From Bacteroides sp. AN502(2024) (GTDB lineage Bacteria; Bacteroidota; Bacteroidia; Bacteroidales; Bacteroidaceae), in assembly GCF_041227145.1 (NCBI RefSeq), contig NZ_JBGFSP010000003.1, positions 2,666,001 through 2,730,000 of the forward strand: a stretch of 64,000 bases of DNA, read 5' to 3'. A model generated the notes under the pieces. That model was given only the letters and a program-made list of their open reading frames with translations. It had not been told where the DNA came from and did no database searches. Numbering within the stretch: position 1 is the stretch's first letter; each line of letters begins with the position of its first letter. Shown here piece after piece: positions 9,274 through 42,493 of the stretch. The translations under genes and the position numbers were made by a program.

Positions 9274-12200
9274 ATGCAGGATTTCGTTCATTTACATGTC
9301 CATACTCAATATTCTTTGTTGGATGGTCAGGCTAGTGTAGCTCGTCTGGTCGATAAAGCCATGAAGAATGGGATGAAGGGTATTGCCGTGACCGACCATG
9401 GAAATATGTTCGGTATCAAGGAATTTACGAATTATGTCAATAAGAAGAATAGCGGTCCGAAAGGTGAAGTGAAGGACCTGAAGAAGCGAATTGCAGGAAT
9501 TGAAGCCGGCACGATAGAGTGCGAAGATAAAGAAGCCGAGATTGCTGCCTGCAAAGCTAAGATCGTGGAAGCGGAAAGCAAACTATTCAAACCGATCATC
9601 GGTTGTGAAATGTATGTGGCACGGCGTACCATGGATCTGAAAGAAGGCAAGCCCGACCAGAGCGGTTATCACCTGATTGTATTGGCTAAGAATGAAAAAG
9701 GGTATCATAATCTTATTAAATTAGTATCGCACGCGTGGACACGCGGTTATTATATGCGTCCGCGTACTGACCGTAGCGAACTGGAAAAATATCATGAAGG
9801 ACTTATCGTCTGTTCAGCCTGTCTGGGGGGTGAGGTGCCGAAACGGATTACTGCCGGACAACTTGCAGAAGCCGAAGAAGCAATACAATGGTATAAGAAC
9901 TTGTTTGGCGATGACTACTATCTGGAGCTGCAACGCCATAAAGCGACTGTCCCCCGCGCCAATCACGAGTGTTATCCGTTACAGGTGAATGTGAATAAGC
10001 ATCTGATAGAGTATGCCAAGAAATTCAATATCAAACTGATTTGTACGAATGACGTTCACTTTGTAGATGAAGAGAATGCGGAAGCGCACGACCGTCTGAT
10101 CTGTTTGAGCACCGGTAAGGATTTGGATGACCCCACCCGTATGCTTTATACCAAACAGGAATGGATGAAGACACGTGAAGAGATGAACGAACTCTTTGCT
10201 GACATGCCCGAAGCATTGAGCAATACGTTGGAGATTCTTGACAAGGTGGAATATTATTCTATTGACCATGCGCCTATCATGCCTACTTTTGCTATTCCGG
10301 AAGATTTCGGAACGGAGGAAGGCTATCGGGCGAAGTTTACCGAAAAAGACTTGTTCGACGAGTTTACTCAGGATGAACATGGTAATGTGGTATTGAGTGA
10401 AGAGGATGCGAAAGCGAAAATCAAACGTTTGGGTGGTTATGATAAACTCTATCGTATTAAACTGGAAGGAGACTATCTGGCAAAACTGGCTTTTGACGGA
10501 GCCAAGAGACTTTATGGCGACCCTCTGACGGAAGAAGTCGAAGAACGAATGAAATTCGAGTTGTACATCATGAAAACAATGGGTTTCCCCGGCTACTTCT
10601 TGATTGTACAGGACTTTATCAATGCTGCGCGTAAGGAACTGGGCGTATCGGTTGGTCCGGGACGTGGCTCGGCTGCCGGTTCGGCGGTGGCTTATTGCTT
10701 GGGTATTACGAAGATAGACCCTATCCAGTATGATTTGCTGTTTGAGCGTTTCTTGAATCCGGACCGTATTTCCTTGCCTGATATCGATGTGGACTTTGAT
10801 GATGACGGTCGTGGTGAGGTACTTCGTTGGGTGACGAATAAATATGGTCAGGAGAAGGTGGCACATATCATTACGTATGGCACCATGGCGACAAAAATGG
10901 CCATCAAGGATGTTGCGCGTGTGCAAAAGCTGCCTTTGACAGAATCCGATCGTTTGTGTAAATTGGTGCCTGATAAGATTCCGGATAAGAAATTGAATTT
11001 GCCGAATGCGATTGCTTATGTCCCTGAATTGCAAGCGGCAGAAGCGTCATCCGATCCGCTATTGCGGGATACGATTAAGTATGCCAAGATGCTCGAAGGT
11101 AACGTGCGTGGTACGGGTGTACATGCCTGTGGTACGATTATCTGTCGTGACGATATCACCGACTGGGTACCTGTCAGTACTGCCGATGATAAGGAAACGG
11201 GTGAAAAAATGCTTGTTACCCAATATGAGGGTTCGGTCATTGAAGATACCGGGTTGATAAAGATGGACTTCCTCGGTCTGAAAACCTTGTCTATCATCAA
11301 AGAGGCTGTTGAAAATATCCGTTTAAGTCGTAATATTGAAGTAGATGTCGATGCGATAGACATTTCCGATCCGGCTACTTATAAATTATACAGTGACGGA
11401 CGTACGATTGGTACATTCCAGTTTGAATCTGCCGGTATGCAGAAGTACTTGCGTGAATTGCAACCTTCTACATTCGAAGATTTGATTGCCATGAATGCCC
11501 TCTATCGTCCGGGTCCGATGGATTATATACCTGATTTTATTGATCGTAAACATGGGCGCAAGCCGATTGAGTATGATATTCCGGTCATGGAAAAATACCT
11601 GAAGGATACGTATGGCATTACGGTCTATCAGGAACAGGTGATGCTTTTGTCGCGCTTATTGGCCGACTTTACCCGTGGTGAGTCCGATGCGCTTCGTAAA
11701 GCGATGGGTAAGAAGTTGCGTGACAAGCTGGATCACATGAAACCTAAATTTATTGAAGGCGGACGAAAGAACGGACATGACCCGAAAGTGCTTGAAAAGA
11801 TTTGGACAGACTGGGAAAAATTCGCATCTTATGCTTTCAATAAGTCGCATGCTACTTGTTATTCGTGGGTAGCTTACCAGACGGCTTATCTGAAAGCGAA
11901 CTATCCTTCCGAATACATGGCGGCTGTGATGAGCCGAAGTTTGTCGAACATTACCGATATCACGAAACTGATGGACGAATGTAAGGCAATGGGTATTCAG
12001 ACACTGGGCCCGGATGTCAATGAGAGTAACTTGAAGTTTACCGTAAATCATGACGGTGATATCCGTTTTGGACTGGGGGCTGTTAAGGGGGTAGGTGAAG
12101 CCGCTGTCCAAAGCATTATGGAGGAACGTAGTAAGAATGGTCCTTTCCGGGGCATTTTTGACTTTGTGCAACGTGTCAACCTGAATGCCTGCAACAAGAA

Positions 12201-13080
12201 AAATATGGAGTGTCTGGCATTAGCCGGGGGATTCGATAGTTTCCCGGAATTGAAGCGGGAACAATATTTTGCTGTAAATTCCAAAGGGGAGGTATTTCTG
12301 GAAACATTGATGCGTTACGGCAACCGTTATCAGGCAGATAAGGCGGCCGCTGTCAATTCCCTGTTCGGTGGCGAAAACATTATCGATGTTGCAACTCCTG
12401 AAATACCCCAAGGAGTAGAACGTTGGAGTGATCTTGACCGCCTGAACCGTGAACGTGATTTGGTCGGTATCTATCTCTCCGCCCATCCGCTGGATGAATT
12501 TTCCATCGTATTGGAACATGTCTGCAATACACATATGGCGGATTTGGAAGATAAAGCCGCGCTTGTCGGTCGTGAGATAACGATGGGAGGAATTGTGACC
12601 GGTGTTCGTCGCGGAGTCAGCAAGAACGGAAATCCGTATGGCATCGCCAAGATCGAAGATTATTCGGGTTCTGCCGAGATACCATTCTGGGGAAATGACT
12701 GGGTAACCTATCAGGGATATCTCAATCAAGGAACGTTCTTGTATATCAAGGCTCGTTGCCAGGCCAGACAATGGCGGAAGGATGAATTGGAAATGAAAAT
12801 CACCTCTATGGAGCTTCTTCCCGATGTGAAAGAAGATCTGGTGCAGAAGATCACGATTGTCATTCCCCTGTCAGTCTTGAACTCGGCTTTGGTTACCGAA
12901 CTTGCCACTTTGACCAAGGAACATCCGGGAAATACGGAACTATACTTCAAGGTGACAGATGATGCTGATGTAACTCATATGTCGGTTGATTTGATTTCCC
13001 GTCCGGTCAAACTTTCAGTAGGCCGGGATTTAATAAGATATTTAAAAGAACGTCCCGAACTGGGATTCCGTATCAATTAA
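9274..13080 (+). CDS. dnaE: DNA polymerase III alpha subunit
   Basis: A 1,268-residue replicative polymerase catalytic subunit. The N-terminal PHP domain begins HLHVHTQYSLLDGQ and holds VTDHGNMFG. The C-family polymerase core has VGPGRGSAAGSAVAYCLGI and the acidic catalytic motif PDIDVDFDDDGR, followed by YQEQVMLLSRLLADFTRGE and LRKAMGKK. A helix-hairpin-helix region (GLGAVKGVGEAA) and an OB-fold region (about residues 1105-1190, EITMGGIVTGVRRGVSKNG) follow. Length and domain order fit DnaE1, with no intein or deletion. It is single, with a terminator at 13137, and forms the left border of the capsule locus. Confidence 0.98.
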   Translation: MQDFVHLHVHTQYSLLDGQASVARLVDKAMKNGMKGIAVTDHGNMFGIKEFTNYVNKKNSGPKGEVKDLKKRIAGIEAGTIECEDKEAEIAACKAKIVEAESKLFKPIIGCEMYVARRTMDLKEGKPDQSGYHLIVLAKNEKGYHNLIKLVSHAWTRGYYMRPRTDRSELEKYHEGLIVCSACLGGEVPKRITAGQLAEAEEAIQWYKNLFGDDYYLELQRHKATVPRANHECYPLQVNVNKHLIEYAKKFNIKLICTNDVHFVDEENAEAHDRLICLSTGKDLDDPTRMLYTKQEWMKTREEMNELFADMPEALSNTLEILDKVEYYSIDHAPIMPTFAIPEDFGTEEGYRAKFTEKDLFDEFTQDEHGNVVLSEEDAKAKIKRLGGYDKLYRIKLEGDYLAKLAFDGAKRLYGDPLTEEVEERMKFELYIMKTMGFPGYFLIVQDFINAARKELGVSVGPGRGSAAGSAVAYCLGITKIDPIQYDLLFERFLNPDRISLPDIDVDFDDDGRGEVLRWVTNKYGQEKVAHIITYGTMATKMAIKDVARVQKLPLTESDRLCKLVPDKIPDKKLNLPNAIAYVPELQAAEASSDPLLRDTIKYAKMLEGNVRGTGVHACGTIICRDDITDWVPVSTADDKETGEKMLVTQYEGSVIEDTGLIKMDFLGLKTLSIIKEAVENIRLSRNIEVDVDAIDISDPATYKLYSDGRTIGTFQFESAGMQKYLRELQPSTFEDLIAMNALYRPGPMDYIPDFIDRKHGRKPIEYDIPVMEKYLKDTYGITVYQEQVMLLSRLLADFTRGESDALRKAMGKKLRDKLDHMKPKFIEGGRKNGHDPKVLEKIWTDWEKFASYAFNKSHATCYSWVAYQTAYLKANYPSEYMAAVMSRSLSNITDITKLMDECKAMGIQTLGPDVNESNLKFTVNHDGDIRFGLGAVKGVGEAAVQSIMEERSKNGPFRGIFDFVQRVNLNACNKKNMECLALAGGFDSFPELKREQYFAVNSKGEVFLETLMRYGNRYQADKAAAVNSLFGGENIIDVATPEIPQGVERWSDLDRLNRERDLVGIYLSAHPLDEFSIVLEHVCNTHMADLEDKAALVGREITMGGIVTGVRRGVSKNGNPYGIAKIEDYSGSAEIPFWGNDWVTYQGYLNQGTFLYIKARCQARQWRKDELEMKITSMELLPDVKEDLVQKITIVIPLSVLNSALVTELATLTKEHPGNTELYFKVTDDADVTHMSVDLISRPVKLSVGRDLIRYLKERPELGFRIN

Positions 13081-13136
13081 TTATACCCGCATTTATTTTG
13101 CCTCATTGGATACTTCTTTGGTAGACAAGGCGAACA

Positions 13137-13171
13137 TCTCATCCTTGAGTCATTGCAAGGATGAGATTTTT
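13137..13171 (+). terminator. Rho-independent terminator of dnaE
   Basis: A perfect 11-bp stem (tctcatccttg / caaggatgaga) with an 8-nt loop is followed by TTTTTAT. It lies 57 nt after the dnaE stop and isolates dnaE from the capsule locus leader. Confidence 0.85.
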
Positions 13172-13266: not shown

Positions 13267-13480
13267 TCTCTATATAAGAGAAATACTAACGGGTACAAAG
13301 ATACGTAATTTATTGTATATAACCACATAAAAACAGGTGTAATTTTGGGTAATTGCTTCTTCCAGAGGAGTAATTACTTAACAACTGTTTCATCATTACC
13401 GATCATATAGTGAATATAATTGTCTGATAACTATGTGATTAAATCAAATTTTACACCCTGTTATTTATCTTATATAGAGA
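13267..13480. promoter_or_regulatory. Invertible promoter segment upstream of upxY
   Basis: Two 19-bp inverted repeats, tctctatataagagaaata at 13267-13285 and its reverse complement at 13462-13480, match at 18 of 19 positions and enclose 176 bp. The similarity extends inward loosely (aac.gggt on both sides). Each repeat is itself a near-dyad (tctct-atata-agaga), as expected of a site-specific recombinase crossover site. The enclosed DNA carries a perfect minus-strand -7 box, TATCTTTG, at 13296-13303, pointing towards dnaE. Inversion would aim it at upxY. This is the architecture of Bacteroides phase-variable capsule promoters; the orientation shown would be OFF. No recombinase gene is adjacent, so a trans-acting invertase is inferred. 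Confidence 0.75.
13296..13303 (-). promoter_or_regulatory. -7 box of the invertible capsule promoter (OFF orientation)
   Basis: The minus strand reads TATCTTTG, a perfect TAnnTTTG element. The sequence about 20 nt upstream (GTGG) is a poor -33 box. As sequenced it transcribes away from upxY; after inversion initiation would fall close to the 13462-13480 repeat and proceed into the upxY leader. Confidence 0.6.
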
Positions 13481-13658
13481 TATGAAAAAAAGAAGGTTGT
13501 AAGCAAACCTTGAATGCATCTTGCATGGGGAAGATGAAACGGTTTAATAATAGTGGGGAGGAATCTCTAACTTTTGTAGGATTTAATTGTAACTGCTTGA
13601 TAAATAGTATTATAAAGAACCAAGCAGGACTAGGATAATTGTCTCAATATTCTATGCT
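13481..13658 (+). other. Long untranslated leader of upxY
   Basis: A 178-nt non-coding stretch lies between the invertible segment and the upxY start. It holds two small inverted repeats: aaggtt/aacctt (13493-13511) and ctgcttg/caagcag (13593-13627). Long upxY leaders in Bacteroides are where premature termination is overcome by UpxY, so these hairpins are candidates for that control. No open reading frame of note is seen. Confidence 0.5.
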
Positions 13659-14207
13659 ATGGCAATCTCGCAAGATGAACAACAGGTGAAATGGTATGTG
13701 ATGCGCGACCTCAAACGTCCTAATACTAAATTGTCAGCTTATAAACAGCTTGGCAATGAGCATTTGGAAGTATTTACTCCTATGCAATGGAGGTTGAGGT
13801 TGAAAAAAGGTAAACGAATTCGTGAAGAAGTACCATTTATGCAGGACTTGCTTTTTGTTCACGATACAAGAGAAGTGATTGATCTGTTTGTTCGTAAGAT
13901 ACCCACCCTTCAGTATCGTTATCTGAAAGGAGGTGGCTATTGTCAGCCTATGACCGTTGCCGATTGGGACATGGAGCGTTTTATACGTGCTGTTAGAGGT
14001 TCGGAAAATCCTAAATATTATTTGCCTGAAGAGATAAAGGATACTATGTATGGTCGTATGATCCGTATCATTGGAGGTCCTCTTGAAGGTTATGAAGGTC
14101 GTCTGCTTACTACCCGTGGTTCTAAAATCAAACGTCTTCTTGTCGAATTACCTCATTTTTTTTCGGTGGGTGTAGAAATAAAGCCTGATTTGATAGAGTT
14201 AATATAA
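13659..14207 (+). CDS. upxY: UpxY family transcription antiterminator
   Basis: A 182-residue NusG-like protein, the first gene of the polysaccharide locus. Residues about 10-105 form the NusG N-terminal-like domain (VKWYVMRDLKRPN, then EVFTPMQWRLRLKKGKRIRE and DLLFVHDTREVIDLFV). The C-terminal part has a KOW-like stretch (MIRIIGGPLEGYEGRLLTTR). UpxY proteins stop premature termination in the leader of their own capsule operon. The gene follows a long leader and the invertible promoter, and ends 2 nt before the next gene. A UpxZ partner, which usually follows and inhibits other loci's UpxY proteins, is absent. Confidence 0.93.
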   Translation: MAISQDEQQVKWYVMRDLKRPNTKLSAYKQLGNEHLEVFTPMQWRLRLKKGKRIREEVPFMQDLLFVHDTREVIDLFVRKIPTLQYRYLKGGGYCQPMTVADWDMERFIRAVRGSENPKYYLPEEIKDTMYGRMIRIIGGPLEGYEGRLLTTRGSKIKRLLVELPHFFSVGVEIKPDLIELI

Positions 14208-38926: not shown

Positions 38927-39178
38927 ATGAAAGAAGAAAATCAAAAAGGGAAGGAACGTCAGATGTCTGAGGAGCAGACGGATATTCAGGCGCTGCTTTT
39001 TAAATATATCATTCACTGGCCTTGGTTTGTAGGGACAGTGCTGCTATGTCTTGTAGGGGCGTGGTTTTATCTGAAATGGGCTACTCCCATTTATAATATC
39101 TCCGCCACTGTTCTCATCAAAGACGACAAGAAGGGGGAGGTGCAGGACTCTCTTCCGGATTGGAGGATATGGGGTTAA
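38927..39178 (+). pseudogene. N-terminal fragment of Wzc-type protein (frameshifted)
   Basis: 83 codons holding the cytoplasmic N-terminus and first transmembrane helix (WPWFVGTVLLCLVGAWFYL) of a chain-length determinant, then KWATPIYNISATVLIKDDKK. The frame goes off at about 39158-39162, where GATTGGAGG stands for an expected GATTTGGAG; one T is missing. The rest of the protein continues in another frame at 39160. Without the shift the two would form one Wzc of about 808 residues. Confidence 0.8.
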
Positions 39179-41352
39179 GTGGTCTGATGACTTCTTCTAA
39201 AAACATAGATAACGAGTTGGAAGTCCTGCGCTCGAAAACTCTCGTAAGAGAGGTGGTTGATCAGTTGGGGCTGTATATAACTTATAAGGATGAGGATGAA
39301 TTTCCGGCTAAAGATTTATATAAGACTTCTCCGGTACAGGTGAGTCTGACTCCTCAGGAGGCTGAGAAACTGAGTGCTCCGATGTGGGTGGAGATGGCCT
39401 TGCAGCCTGAAGGCAGTATAGATGTGAATGTGACCATAGGTGAGAAGGTGTATGGGAAACGTTTTGAGAAACTGCCTGCTATTTTTCCGACCGACGAGGG
39501 TACGCTGGCTTTCTTCCAGCATGTTGATTCGGTAACCTTGAAGGATGGAACGAAGGTTTCTCGGAAGGGAGGGGAGGTGCGTCATATCACAGCGACTGTC
39601 CACAAACCGATGAGTGTGGTAAGGGGGTATTGTAACAACCTGTCTGTCGCACCGACCTCTAAGACTACTTCCGTGGCTGTGATTTCGTTGAAGAACTCCA
39701 GTTTGCAGCGTGGTCAGGATTTTATCAATCAGTTGCTTGAAATGTATAATCGCAATACGAATAATGATAAGAATGAAATTGCACAGAAGACAGCAGAGTT
39801 TATCGATGAACGTATCGGTATCATTTCAAAAGAACTGGGAAGTACGGAAGCTGACTTGGAGTCTTTCAAACGTGACGCAGGTATCACGGATTTGACGAGC
39901 GAGGCACAGATTGCTTTGGCAGGTAATGCGGAGTATGAAAAGAAAAGTGTGGAGAATCGTACTCAGATCAGTCTGGTGAATGATTTGCGTAAGTATCTGC
40001 AAGGAAATGAATATGAAGTCTTGCCAAGCAATGTGGGTTTGCAGGACGCTGCTTTGAACGGAGCGGTGGAGCGTTACAACGAGATGCTTGTCGAGCGTAA
40101 GCGTCTGCTGCGTACATCGACAGAGAACAATCCTGCCATTGTCAATCTGGATACGAGTATCCGTGCGATGAAAGCCAATGTGCAGGCCACTCTTGAGGGC
40201 ACCTTGCAGGGGCTGATGATCACCAAAGAGAATCTGGACCGTGAGGCCGGCCGCTATTCGCGGCGTATCAGCAATGCTCCGGGACAGGAGCGTGCTTATG
40301 TAAGTATTGCACGCCAGCAGGAGATCAAAGCGGGATTGTATCTGATGTTGTTGCAGAAACGTGAGGAGAATGCGATTGCGCTGGCTGCCACGGCGAACAA
40401 TGCGAAGATTATCGATGAAGCGATCGCTGACGATGTGCCGGTATCTCCCAAGCAATCCGTGATCTATTTGATTGCATTGGTACTGGGTGTCGGTATTCCC
40501 GTTGGCATCATCTATCTGATTGAACTGACGAAATTCAAGATCGAAGGTCGTGCCGATGTAGAGAAGCTGACGTGTGTGCCGGTTATCGGTGATATCCCGT
40601 TGACAGACGAGAAGGATGCCGGGGATGGTTCCATTGCTGTATTTGAGAATAGGAATAATTTGATGAGTGAGACTTTTCGTAATATCCGGACCAACCTTCA
40701 GTTTATGTTGGGGAATGATTGTAGGGTGATCCTTGTGACCTCAACAATCAGTGGTGAGGGAAAGTCGTTTGTTTCGTCGAACCTGGCAATCAGTCTTTCT
40801 CTTTTGGGAAAGAAGGTGGTGATTGTCGGGTTGGATATTCGTAAGCCCGGTCTGAATAAGGTATTCCGGCTTTCTCATAAGGAGAAAGGGATTACTCAAT
40901 ATCTATCCAATCCTGAGGCGGATCTGATGGCGTTTGTTCAACCTTCCGATGTCAATAAGAATCTGTTTATTCTTCCGGGAGGTACGGTTCCTCCTAATCC
41001 TACGGAACTGCTGGCGCGTAACGGACTGGACAGGGCCATAGAAACCTTGAAGCAGAATTTTGACTATGTGATCATGGATACTGCTCCCGTTGGTATGGTG
41101 ACAGATACTTTACTGATAGGTCGTGTGGCTGATTTATCGGTGTATGTGTGTCGTGCCGACTATACTCATAAGGTGGAATATACATTGATCAATGAACTGG
41201 CTGAGGGGAATAAGTTGCCTCATCTTTGTACGATAATTAATGGTGTCGACCTGAAGAAGCGGAAGTATGGCTATTATTACGGTTATGGTAAGTACGGACA
41301 GTACTACGGCTATGGCAAGCGTTATGGTTATGGCTATGGTCAGAAACAGTAA
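39160..41352 (+). CDS. Wzc-type chain-length determinant / tyrosine autokinase (main part)
   Basis: A 730-codon frame with the periplasmic coiled-coil region (residues about 190-380), the second membrane helix (SVIYLIALVLGVGIPVGIIYL) and the cytoplasmic BY-kinase domain. Kinase motifs: Walker A in TISGEGKSFVSSNLAISL, Walker A' VGLDIRKPG, Walker B YVIMDTAPVGM. The C-terminus is a tyrosine cluster (YYYGYGKYGQYYGYGKRYGY), the autophosphorylation tail that regulates polymer length. A one-base deletion separates it from its first membrane helix. If the lesion is real, the frame starts at a TTG (39160) or ATG (39169), without the first helix. Confidence 0.88.
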   Translation: MEDMGLSGLMTSSKNIDNELEVLRSKTLVREVVDQLGLYITYKDEDEFPAKDLYKTSPVQVSLTPQEAEKLSAPMWVEMALQPEGSIDVNVTIGEKVYGKRFEKLPAIFPTDEGTLAFFQHVDSVTLKDGTKVSRKGGEVRHITATVHKPMSVVRGYCNNLSVAPTSKTTSVAVISLKNSSLQRGQDFINQLLEMYNRNTNNDKNEIAQKTAEFIDERIGIISKELGSTEADLESFKRDAGITDLTSEAQIALAGNAEYEKKSVENRTQISLVNDLRKYLQGNEYEVLPSNVGLQDAALNGAVERYNEMLVERKRLLRTSTENNPAIVNLDTSIRAMKANVQATLEGTLQGLMITKENLDREAGRYSRRISNAPGQERAYVSIARQQEIKAGLYLMLLQKREENAIALAATANNAKIIDEAIADDVPVSPKQSVIYLIALVLGVGIPVGIIYLIELTKFKIEGRADVEKLTCVPVIGDIPLTDEKDAGDGSIAVFENRNNLMSETFRNIRTNLQFMLGNDCRVILVTSTISGEGKSFVSSNLAISLSLLGKKVVIVGLDIRKPGLNKVFRLSHKEKGITQYLSNPEADLMAFVQPSDVNKNLFILPGGTVPPNPTELLARNGLDRAIETLKQNFDYVIMDTAPVGMVTDTLLIGRVADLSVYVCRADYTHKVEYTLINELAEGNKLPHLCTIINGVDLKKRKYGYYYGYGKYGQYYGYGKRYGYGYGQKQ

Positions 41353-42178: not shown

Positions 42179-42493
42179 ATGGCTTTAGAATTTACAGACA
42201 GCAACTATAAAGAGGTTCTGGCAGAAGGGAAACCGGTTGTTGTAGATTTTTGGGCTCCTTGGTGTGGCCCTTGCAAAATGGTGGCTCCTATTATGGAGGA
42301 ATTGGCTGCAGAGTTTGAAGGACAGGTGATCATCGGCAAATGCGATGTCGACGAGAATGGTGATATGGCGGCCGAATACGGTATCCGCAATATTCCTACC
42401 GTATTGTTTTTCAAGAATGGTGAGATCGTAGACAAGCAGGTAGGCGCAGTTGGCAAACCGGTATTTGCGGAAAAAATAAAGAAACTTTTATAG
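42179..42493 (+). CDS. trxA: Thioredoxin
   Basis: A 104-residue thioredoxin with the redox motif WAPWCGPCK, the cis-Pro segment RNIPTVLFFKNGE, and the usual length. It is a cytosolic dithiol reductase. It has its own promoter and is followed 31 nt later by a small conserved gene that is probably co-transcribed. It marks the right border of the capsule locus. Confidence 0.96.
   Translation: MALEFTDSNYKEVLAEGKPVVVDFWAPWCGPCKMVAPIMEELAAEFEGQVIIGKCDVDENGDMAAEYGIRNIPTVLFFKNGEIVDKQVGAVGKPVFAEKIKKLL

What the first reader, a model, noticed from the sequence alone, without database searches (positions are those of the whole stretch)
13267..13480. Phase-variable (invertible) capsule promoter caught in the OFF orientation
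Two 19-bp inverted repeats, 18 of 19 identical, enclose 176 bp and a perfect TATCTTTG -7 box that faces away from upxY. Flipping the segment would aim the promoter at upxY and the whole polysaccharide locus. Invertible promoters are known for Bacteroides capsules, but the repeat sequence here (tctctatataagagaaata) and its near-dyad form may define the recombinase that acts on it. No invertase is encoded next to it.
Basis: partly seen in the sequence, partly recalled or inferred. Interest (0 to 1): 0.75.

Follow-up and report, generated by a model that had tools for sequence, protein, structure and literature searches.

The report
Capsule promoter switch missing its invertase
A gut Bacteroides carries what looks like a flippable on/off promoter for a surface-sugar capsule, drawn in the off position, but the gene for the enzyme that should flip it has been cut down to a short leftover, so the switch is either stuck or depends on a related enzyme elsewhere in the genome.

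Summary
In detail: 19-nt inverted repeats (18/19) at 13267-13285 and 13462-13480 enclose 176 bp and a TATCTTTG box pointing away from upxY. They are a tyrosine-recombinase-type site pair: CTCT-nnnn-AAGAG arms around a 4-nt spacer that is the same in both arms. The paired pattern occurs 64 times in 45 of 158 genus genomes; 55 pairs (39 genomes) share the spacer. In the two sister species with the same switch (B. faecis MAJ27 = G001, and G061) the arms carry a matching spacer change, and an intact 402-aa tyrosine recombinase lies just upstream. In the window that gene is only a 3' stub (13084-13167), 4 nt after the dnaE stop, at the edge of a ~29-kb polysaccharide island between dnaE and trxA. 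So the switch is an orphan. The genome has no serine-invertase match but two intact paralogous recombinases without local sites, and a second orphan switch before a fimbrial-type operon. Either the promoter is locked or a paralogue, best G000:C12:60500-61705, flips it in trans. Inversion was not observed. The kind is known; the invertase loss and trans candidates are new here.

The parts
13267..13285 (+). Left recombination-type site: TCTCT-ATATA-AGAGAAATA dyad
   Evidence: family site pattern
13462..13480 (-). Right site, inverted copy (18/19; the G/T mismatch is also present in both sister species)
13286..13461 (.). Putatively invertible 176-bp segment
13296..13303 (-). TATCTTTG -7 box, 20 nt from the start of AAGA of the left arm, reading out through the left arm (OFF); TACCTTTG in both sister species
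   Evidence: consensus TANNTTTGY quoted in PMC8748976
13340..13347 (+). Second TAnnTTTG match (TAATTTTG) in mid-segment, facing upxY as drawn; kept in G061, not in G001; not at the family position
13084..13167 (+). 3' stub of the cognate tyrosine recombinase gene (TRIYFASLDTSLVDKAN, then out of frame)
13136..13167 (+). Terminator-like hairpin inside the stub (12 pairs plus T tail), between dnaE and the switch
13481..13658 (+). Leader between switch and upxY, conserved in both sister species
13659..14207 (+). upxY transcription antiterminator, first gene of the polysaccharide locus
   Evidence: NF033644 136.3 bits, cut-off 100; PF02357
13084..42130 (+). Polysaccharide island between dnaE and trxA (right edge approximate); genes to 22136 and 39160-41352 checked by Pfam, the rest not
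9274..13080 (+). dnaE, DNA polymerase III alpha; left neighbour of the island
42179..42493 (+). trxA (thioredoxin, PF00085), which follows dnaE directly in 5 of 7 related genomes examined

Best explanation
This is a tyrosine-recombinase inverton: a 176-bp promoter segment between two inverted dyad sites, in the OFF orientation, in front of upxY and a ~29-kb polysaccharide locus. Inversion would put TATCTTTG at 13444-13451, with transcription starting near or inside the right arm and a leader of about 200 nt to upxY. Its own invertase, intact in the two sister species, has been truncated to a 3' stub at the island's left edge. Shown by sequence: the site pair, the promoter box, the family, the stub and the island junctions. 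Inferred: that the segment inverts, that the end box is the promoter used, and that flipping now either has stopped or relies on a paralogue in trans, most plausibly the intact recombinase at G000:C12:60500-61705. I put trans-flipping and locked at about equal odds.
For: The site pair is far above chance. Arms, end box and leader are conserved in two sister species, where one spacer position differs from the window in both arms together (ATAT/ATAT against CTAT/CTAT). Genus-wide, 55 of 64 pattern pairs have the same 4-nt spacer in both arms, 9 do not (hand count of the listing); the reversed control pattern gave 7 hits. 34 of the 55 lie 16-686 bp from a family recombinase. A TAnnTTTG box starts 18-22 nt from the AAGA of one arm in 32 of 39 recombinase-linked pairs fetched; 26 read toward the recombinase and 6 away, 7 have none, so both orientations exist in the family (pairs pre-selected for equal spacers). 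The intact recombinase is directly upstream in G001 (100%) and G061 (95%); the next best match is 70%. The stub reads 17 residues of its C-terminus. dnaE and trxA are adjacent in 5 of 7 related genomes. C12 keeps the blocks conserved among the five recombinases aligned, the C-terminal tyrosine included (by eye).
Against: No read, PCR or RNA data. All 3 genomes with this switch have the same orientation. A second box, TAATTTTG at 13340-13347, faces upxY as drawn, so the drawn state may not be fully OFF; it is absent in G001, lies away from the family position, and such extra boxes occur in 8 of 49 family segments. The -33 region of the end box is not a consensus TTTG. C12 is only 64-65% identical to the sister orthologs of the lost invertase, and its grouping with recombinases linked to AAGAGAAATA/AAGAGAAGTA sites is weakly supported (91/47). 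The stub could in principle be an assembly join, though it lies inside a 3.75-Mb contig.
Confidence: 0.85

Rival explanations
1. Locked: after loss of its invertase the switch no longer flips; the capsule locus is silent in this lineage unless transcribed from another promoter.
For: No working family recombinase in cis. A strong terminator-like hairpin lies in the stub (-18.4 kcal/mol, z -5.7), whereas the same stretch in G001 folds no better than shuffles (z -0.66), so read-through from dnaE is unlikely; the motif scan found 1 terminator against 0.4 expected. Deleting BF2766 (tsr19) in B. fragilis stopped inversion at both its promoters (passages of PMC4747536).
Against: Both arms and their spacer are still matched, and the upxY frame is intact. 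Two intact family recombinases remain in the genome. Trans action by Tsr19 on a distant promoter is documented. The box at 13340-13347 could drive upxY as drawn.
Confidence: 0.42
2. Flipped in trans by the paralogue at G000:C12:60500-61705 (or C3:1481423-1482622), possibly together with the second orphan switch at C3:1823702-1823911.
For: The genome holds just two site pairs of the pattern, neither with a family recombinase nearby, and two family recombinases at E <= 1e-60 of 400+ residues without a site pair in the stretches fetched. C12's nearest relatives by identity (66.7-67.4%) are linked to AAGAGAAATA and AAGAGAAGTA sites. Genus-wide 21 of 55 site pairs have no listed family recombinase within 2 kb (an upper bound, since one search's list was cut).
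Against: Spacers differ between the two orphan switches (ATAT, CTGT). No closer relative of C12 with a linked site was in the set. Tree support for its grouping is weak.
Confidence: 0.42
3. Another of the 33 PF00589 recombinases in the genome, outside this family, flips it.
For: 33 PF00589 matches; some are about 32-37% identical to the family over 290-400 residues.
Against: Family recombinases are the ones linked to CTCTnnnnAAGAG sites; linkage of the others to such sites was not surveyed.
Confidence: 0.08
4. The repeats are a regulator operator or RNA structure, not recombination sites.
For: Each arm is itself a near-dyad.
Against: Locus-specific spacer matched between arms in 55 of 64 pairs, linkage to tyrosine recombinases, and a box at fixed distance found at one end or the other.
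Confidence: 0.04

Closest known systems
Invertase - invertible promoter - upxY - glycan loci of Bacteroidales (PMC8748976 passages; PMC11892184 passages)
   Same: Invertase directly upstream of an invertible TAnnTTTG promoter, with upxY and glycan genes downstream, as in G001 and G061.
   Different: In the window the invertase is a stub. I could not match the repeat or the recombinase to a named class in those papers; only passages were seen and supplements were not available.
Tsr19 / BF2766 of B. fragilis, local and distant inversion (PMC4747536 passages)
   Same: A tyrosine invertase acting on a polysaccharide promoter and on a distant one; precedent for trans control.
   Different: Sequence relation not tested; here no local invertase remains.
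Mpi-controlled B. fragilis capsule promoters (passages)
   Same: Phase-variable upxY-led capsule promoters. In B. intestinalis loci with a related repeat the start site maps inside the proximal repeat (PMC8375218 passage).
   Different: Mpi is a serine recombinase with ARACGTTCGTN repeats. This genome has no PF00239 match and the repeat differs.

Membership tests
Bacteroidales invertible capsule promoter (inverton) | Paired inverted repeats around a short intergenic promoter segment | tested here: met
Bacteroidales invertible capsule promoter (inverton) | TAnnTTTG box that faces the locus in one orientation only | tested here: inconclusive
   The end box faces upxY only after flipping (13444-13451), but a mid-segment box at 13340-13347 faces upxY as drawn; -33 not consensus
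Bacteroidales invertible capsule promoter (inverton) | upxY and polysaccharide genes directly downstream | tested here: met
Bacteroidales invertible capsule promoter (inverton) | Both orientations observed in DNA | not testable with these tools
   no reads; 3 of 3 genomes carry one orientation
CTCTnnnnAAGAG tyrosine-invertase switches (defined here) | Dyad arms with the same 4-nt spacer in both | tested here: met
   ATAT in both arms
CTCTnnnnAAGAG tyrosine-invertase switches (defined here) | Intact family recombinase within 2 kb (typical, not universal) | tested here: not met
   only a 3' stub; 34 of 55 pairs have a recombinase of the family within 2 kb
Mpi (serine recombinase) switches | Serine recombinase in the genome and ARACGTTCGTN-type repeat | tested here: not met
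   0 PF00239 matches at E <= 0.001; the repeat quoted is absent from the arms
Tsr19-like trans-acting invertases | Inverts a distant site | not testable with these tools
   needs deletion and read mapping

The most novel reading that the evidence does not exclude
In this genome two surface-structure switches, one for a capsule and one for a fimbrial-type operon, have both lost their own invertases and are now driven in trans by one orphan tyrosine recombinase left over from a third, fimbrial, locus. Local one-gene switches would then have become a small coupled network, a step toward a master invertase.
Probability: 0.3. Interest if true: 0.65.

Novelty: new variant of a known kind. Interest (0 to 1): 0.45.

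Why it matters
Invertible capsule promoters decide which surface sugars gut Bacteroides show to phages and the host. This case shows how such a switch can sit with its capsule island yet lose its enzyme, and gives a readable site code (arms plus matched spacer) linking switches to recombinases across a genus. It offers a natural test of whether related invertases cross-act, which would couple capsule and fimbrial states.

Tried and rejected
The first paired-repeat scan missed the window itself because its gap range ended at 170 while the gap here is 176; repeated with 162-192 (9 of 158 genomes; 5 of those 9 have long matching arms, the other 4 look like chance). Mpi or another serine recombinase: rejected, no PF00239 match. 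A genome contigs pattern scan gave 84 stretches; the 80 loci listed (L122-L201) were examined and 4 had arms alike at 18 or more of 24 positions; the rest look like chance. The window's own species stayed unnamed; that its genus is Bacteroides follows from G001 being of the same genus. No site pair was found near the C12 or C3 paralogues. NCBIfam gave no family above its cut-off for the recombinases. Seven paper searches: no listed title or abstract start reports this locus or a capsule switch with an invertase stub; found passages of six papers were read, no paper as a whole. Decay of the window's outer arms was considered; they fall within family variation (by eye).

Full report
What is there. 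The repeats, their 176-bp spacing and the TATCTTTG box are as described. The pair is the only one of at least 18/19 with arm starts 100-300 bp apart in 64 kb, against 0 in 10 Markov sequences. With up to 2 mismatches the 19-mer matches only these two arms in the 4.8-Mb genome, and the reversed control matches once. upxY is real (NF033644, 136.3 bits against a cut-off of 100) and is followed by nucleotide-sugar and polysaccharide genes. One point against a clean OFF state: TAATTTTG at 13340-13347, also a TAnnTTTG match, faces upxY as drawn. G061 keeps it, G001 does not; it is not at the position seen across the family, and 8 of 49 family segments have some such extra box.

Relatives. Of 158 genomes of the genus searched with the switch region, 5 match, the window's own included: G061 (83%) and G001 (79%) over most of it, G134 and G082 over part of the leader only. 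All three switches have the same orientation. Between the window and its two sisters the central spacer differs at one position, and it differs in both arms. This is expected if strand exchange needs identical spacers, and hard to explain for an idle repeat. The single arm mismatch (G at the promoter end, T at the other) is the same in all three.

The invertase. In G001 and G061 an intact 402-aa tyrosine recombinase lies 246 and 271 bp from the site pair; the G001 protein has Arm-DNA-bind_5, Phage_int_SAM_5 and Phage_integrase domains. In the window the 84 bp from 13084, starting 4 nt after the dnaE stop, align to the end of the G001 gene at 74 of 85 columns (87%) and read TRIYFASLDTSLVDKAN before the frame is lost. 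In 5 of 7 related genomes examined (G044, G001, G059, G009, G030; not G021, G012), dnaE is followed directly by a thioredoxin gene; in the window that gene is at 42179, with the trxA upstream sequence kept beside it. So the island, beginning inside the invertase gene, sits between dnaE and trxA. The stub holds a strong hairpin with a T tail; the corresponding G001 stretch folds no better than shuffles (G061 not folded). Whether truncation happened at insertion or later is unknown.

The family. The pattern CTCTnnnnAAGA, 170-200 nt, and its inverse occurs in 45 of 158 genomes as 64 pairs. By hand count of that listing 55 pairs, in 39 genomes, have the same 4-nt spacer in both arms (26 different spacers) and 9 do not; the reversed pattern gave 7 hits. 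Of the 55, 34 lie 16-686 bp from a recombinase of the family and 21 have none listed within 2 kb; the recombinase list was cut at its end, so 21 is an upper bound. In the loci that I fetched, 49 distinct equal-spacer pairs were found, 39 of them with a linked recombinase (two share an arm): a CAAAnnTA box lies just inside the arm nearest the recombinase in 26, in the far arm in 6, and in neither in 7. Both orientations therefore occur in the family, with an excess of the one that is OFF wherever I looked at the operon side (G001, G061, G064). An OFF drawing in assemblies is known: a B. fragilis large-capsule promoter was OFF in all three genomes compared (PMC3090145 passage). Other members front fimbrial operons (G064, DUF3575 and fimbrillin), and one lies in an Alistipes MAG.

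Who flips it now. The window's genome has no PF00239 match, 33 PF00589 matches, and two intact close members of this family: C12:60500-61705 (64% to the G001 invertase) and C3:1481423-1482622 (57%) (a third match at E <= 1e-60 was counted for this genome but is not in the part of the list shown). Neither has a site pair in the stretch fetched around it; C12 is followed by a transposase-like gene pair (rve domain) and then a DUF3575/fimbrillin operon. A second switch, C3:1823702-1823911 (spacer CTGT), fronts a fimbrial-type operon (DUF3575, DUF3868/OmpA; the one subunit-like protein tested had no Pfam match) with no family recombinase in the 19 kb fetched; its relative in G065 does have one in cis. 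Thus two orphan switches and two orphan recombinases share a genome. C12's nearest relatives by identity are linked to AAGAGAAATA and AAGAGAAGTA arms, close to the window's arms, but tree support is weak (91/47). Tsr19 shows that a tyrosine invertase can act at a distance (PMC4747536 passages). This makes trans-flipping plausible, not shown.

Verdict. A promoter switch of a known kind, drawn OFF, whose cognate invertase is a stub. Present switching is undecided between locked and trans control.

Noticed in passing
G000:C3:1823702-1823911 (L236:8703-8912): Second switch of the same family, spacer CTGT, before a fimbrial-type operon (DUF3575, DUF3868/OmpA) and without a family recombinase in the 19 kb fetched.
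   Followed up: partly
L087:8471-18015 (G000:C12): Intact family recombinase and a DUF3575/fimbrillin operon separated by a transposase-like gene pair; no site pair found between them.
   Followed up: partly
window 38927-41352: A Wzc-like protein (GNVR and AAA_31 in the larger part) appears split into two overlapping frames of 83 and 730 aa, a frameshift or a sequencing error.
   Followed up: no
window 13569-13648: Part of the upxY leader matches stretches in G134 and G082 at 74%, perhaps a shared antitermination element.
   Followed up: no
family loci, some 40-50 nt inside the arm without the promoter (by eye): A recurrent TATCAG / TATACAG-like motif, also GTTATCAG in the window; possibly an accessory protein site.
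   Followed up: no
G018:C8:127110-127313 and G153:C1:2925522-2925724: Two related pairs with a GTAC spacer and arms that diverge quickly, no listed family recombinase near; maybe a different element.
   Followed up: no
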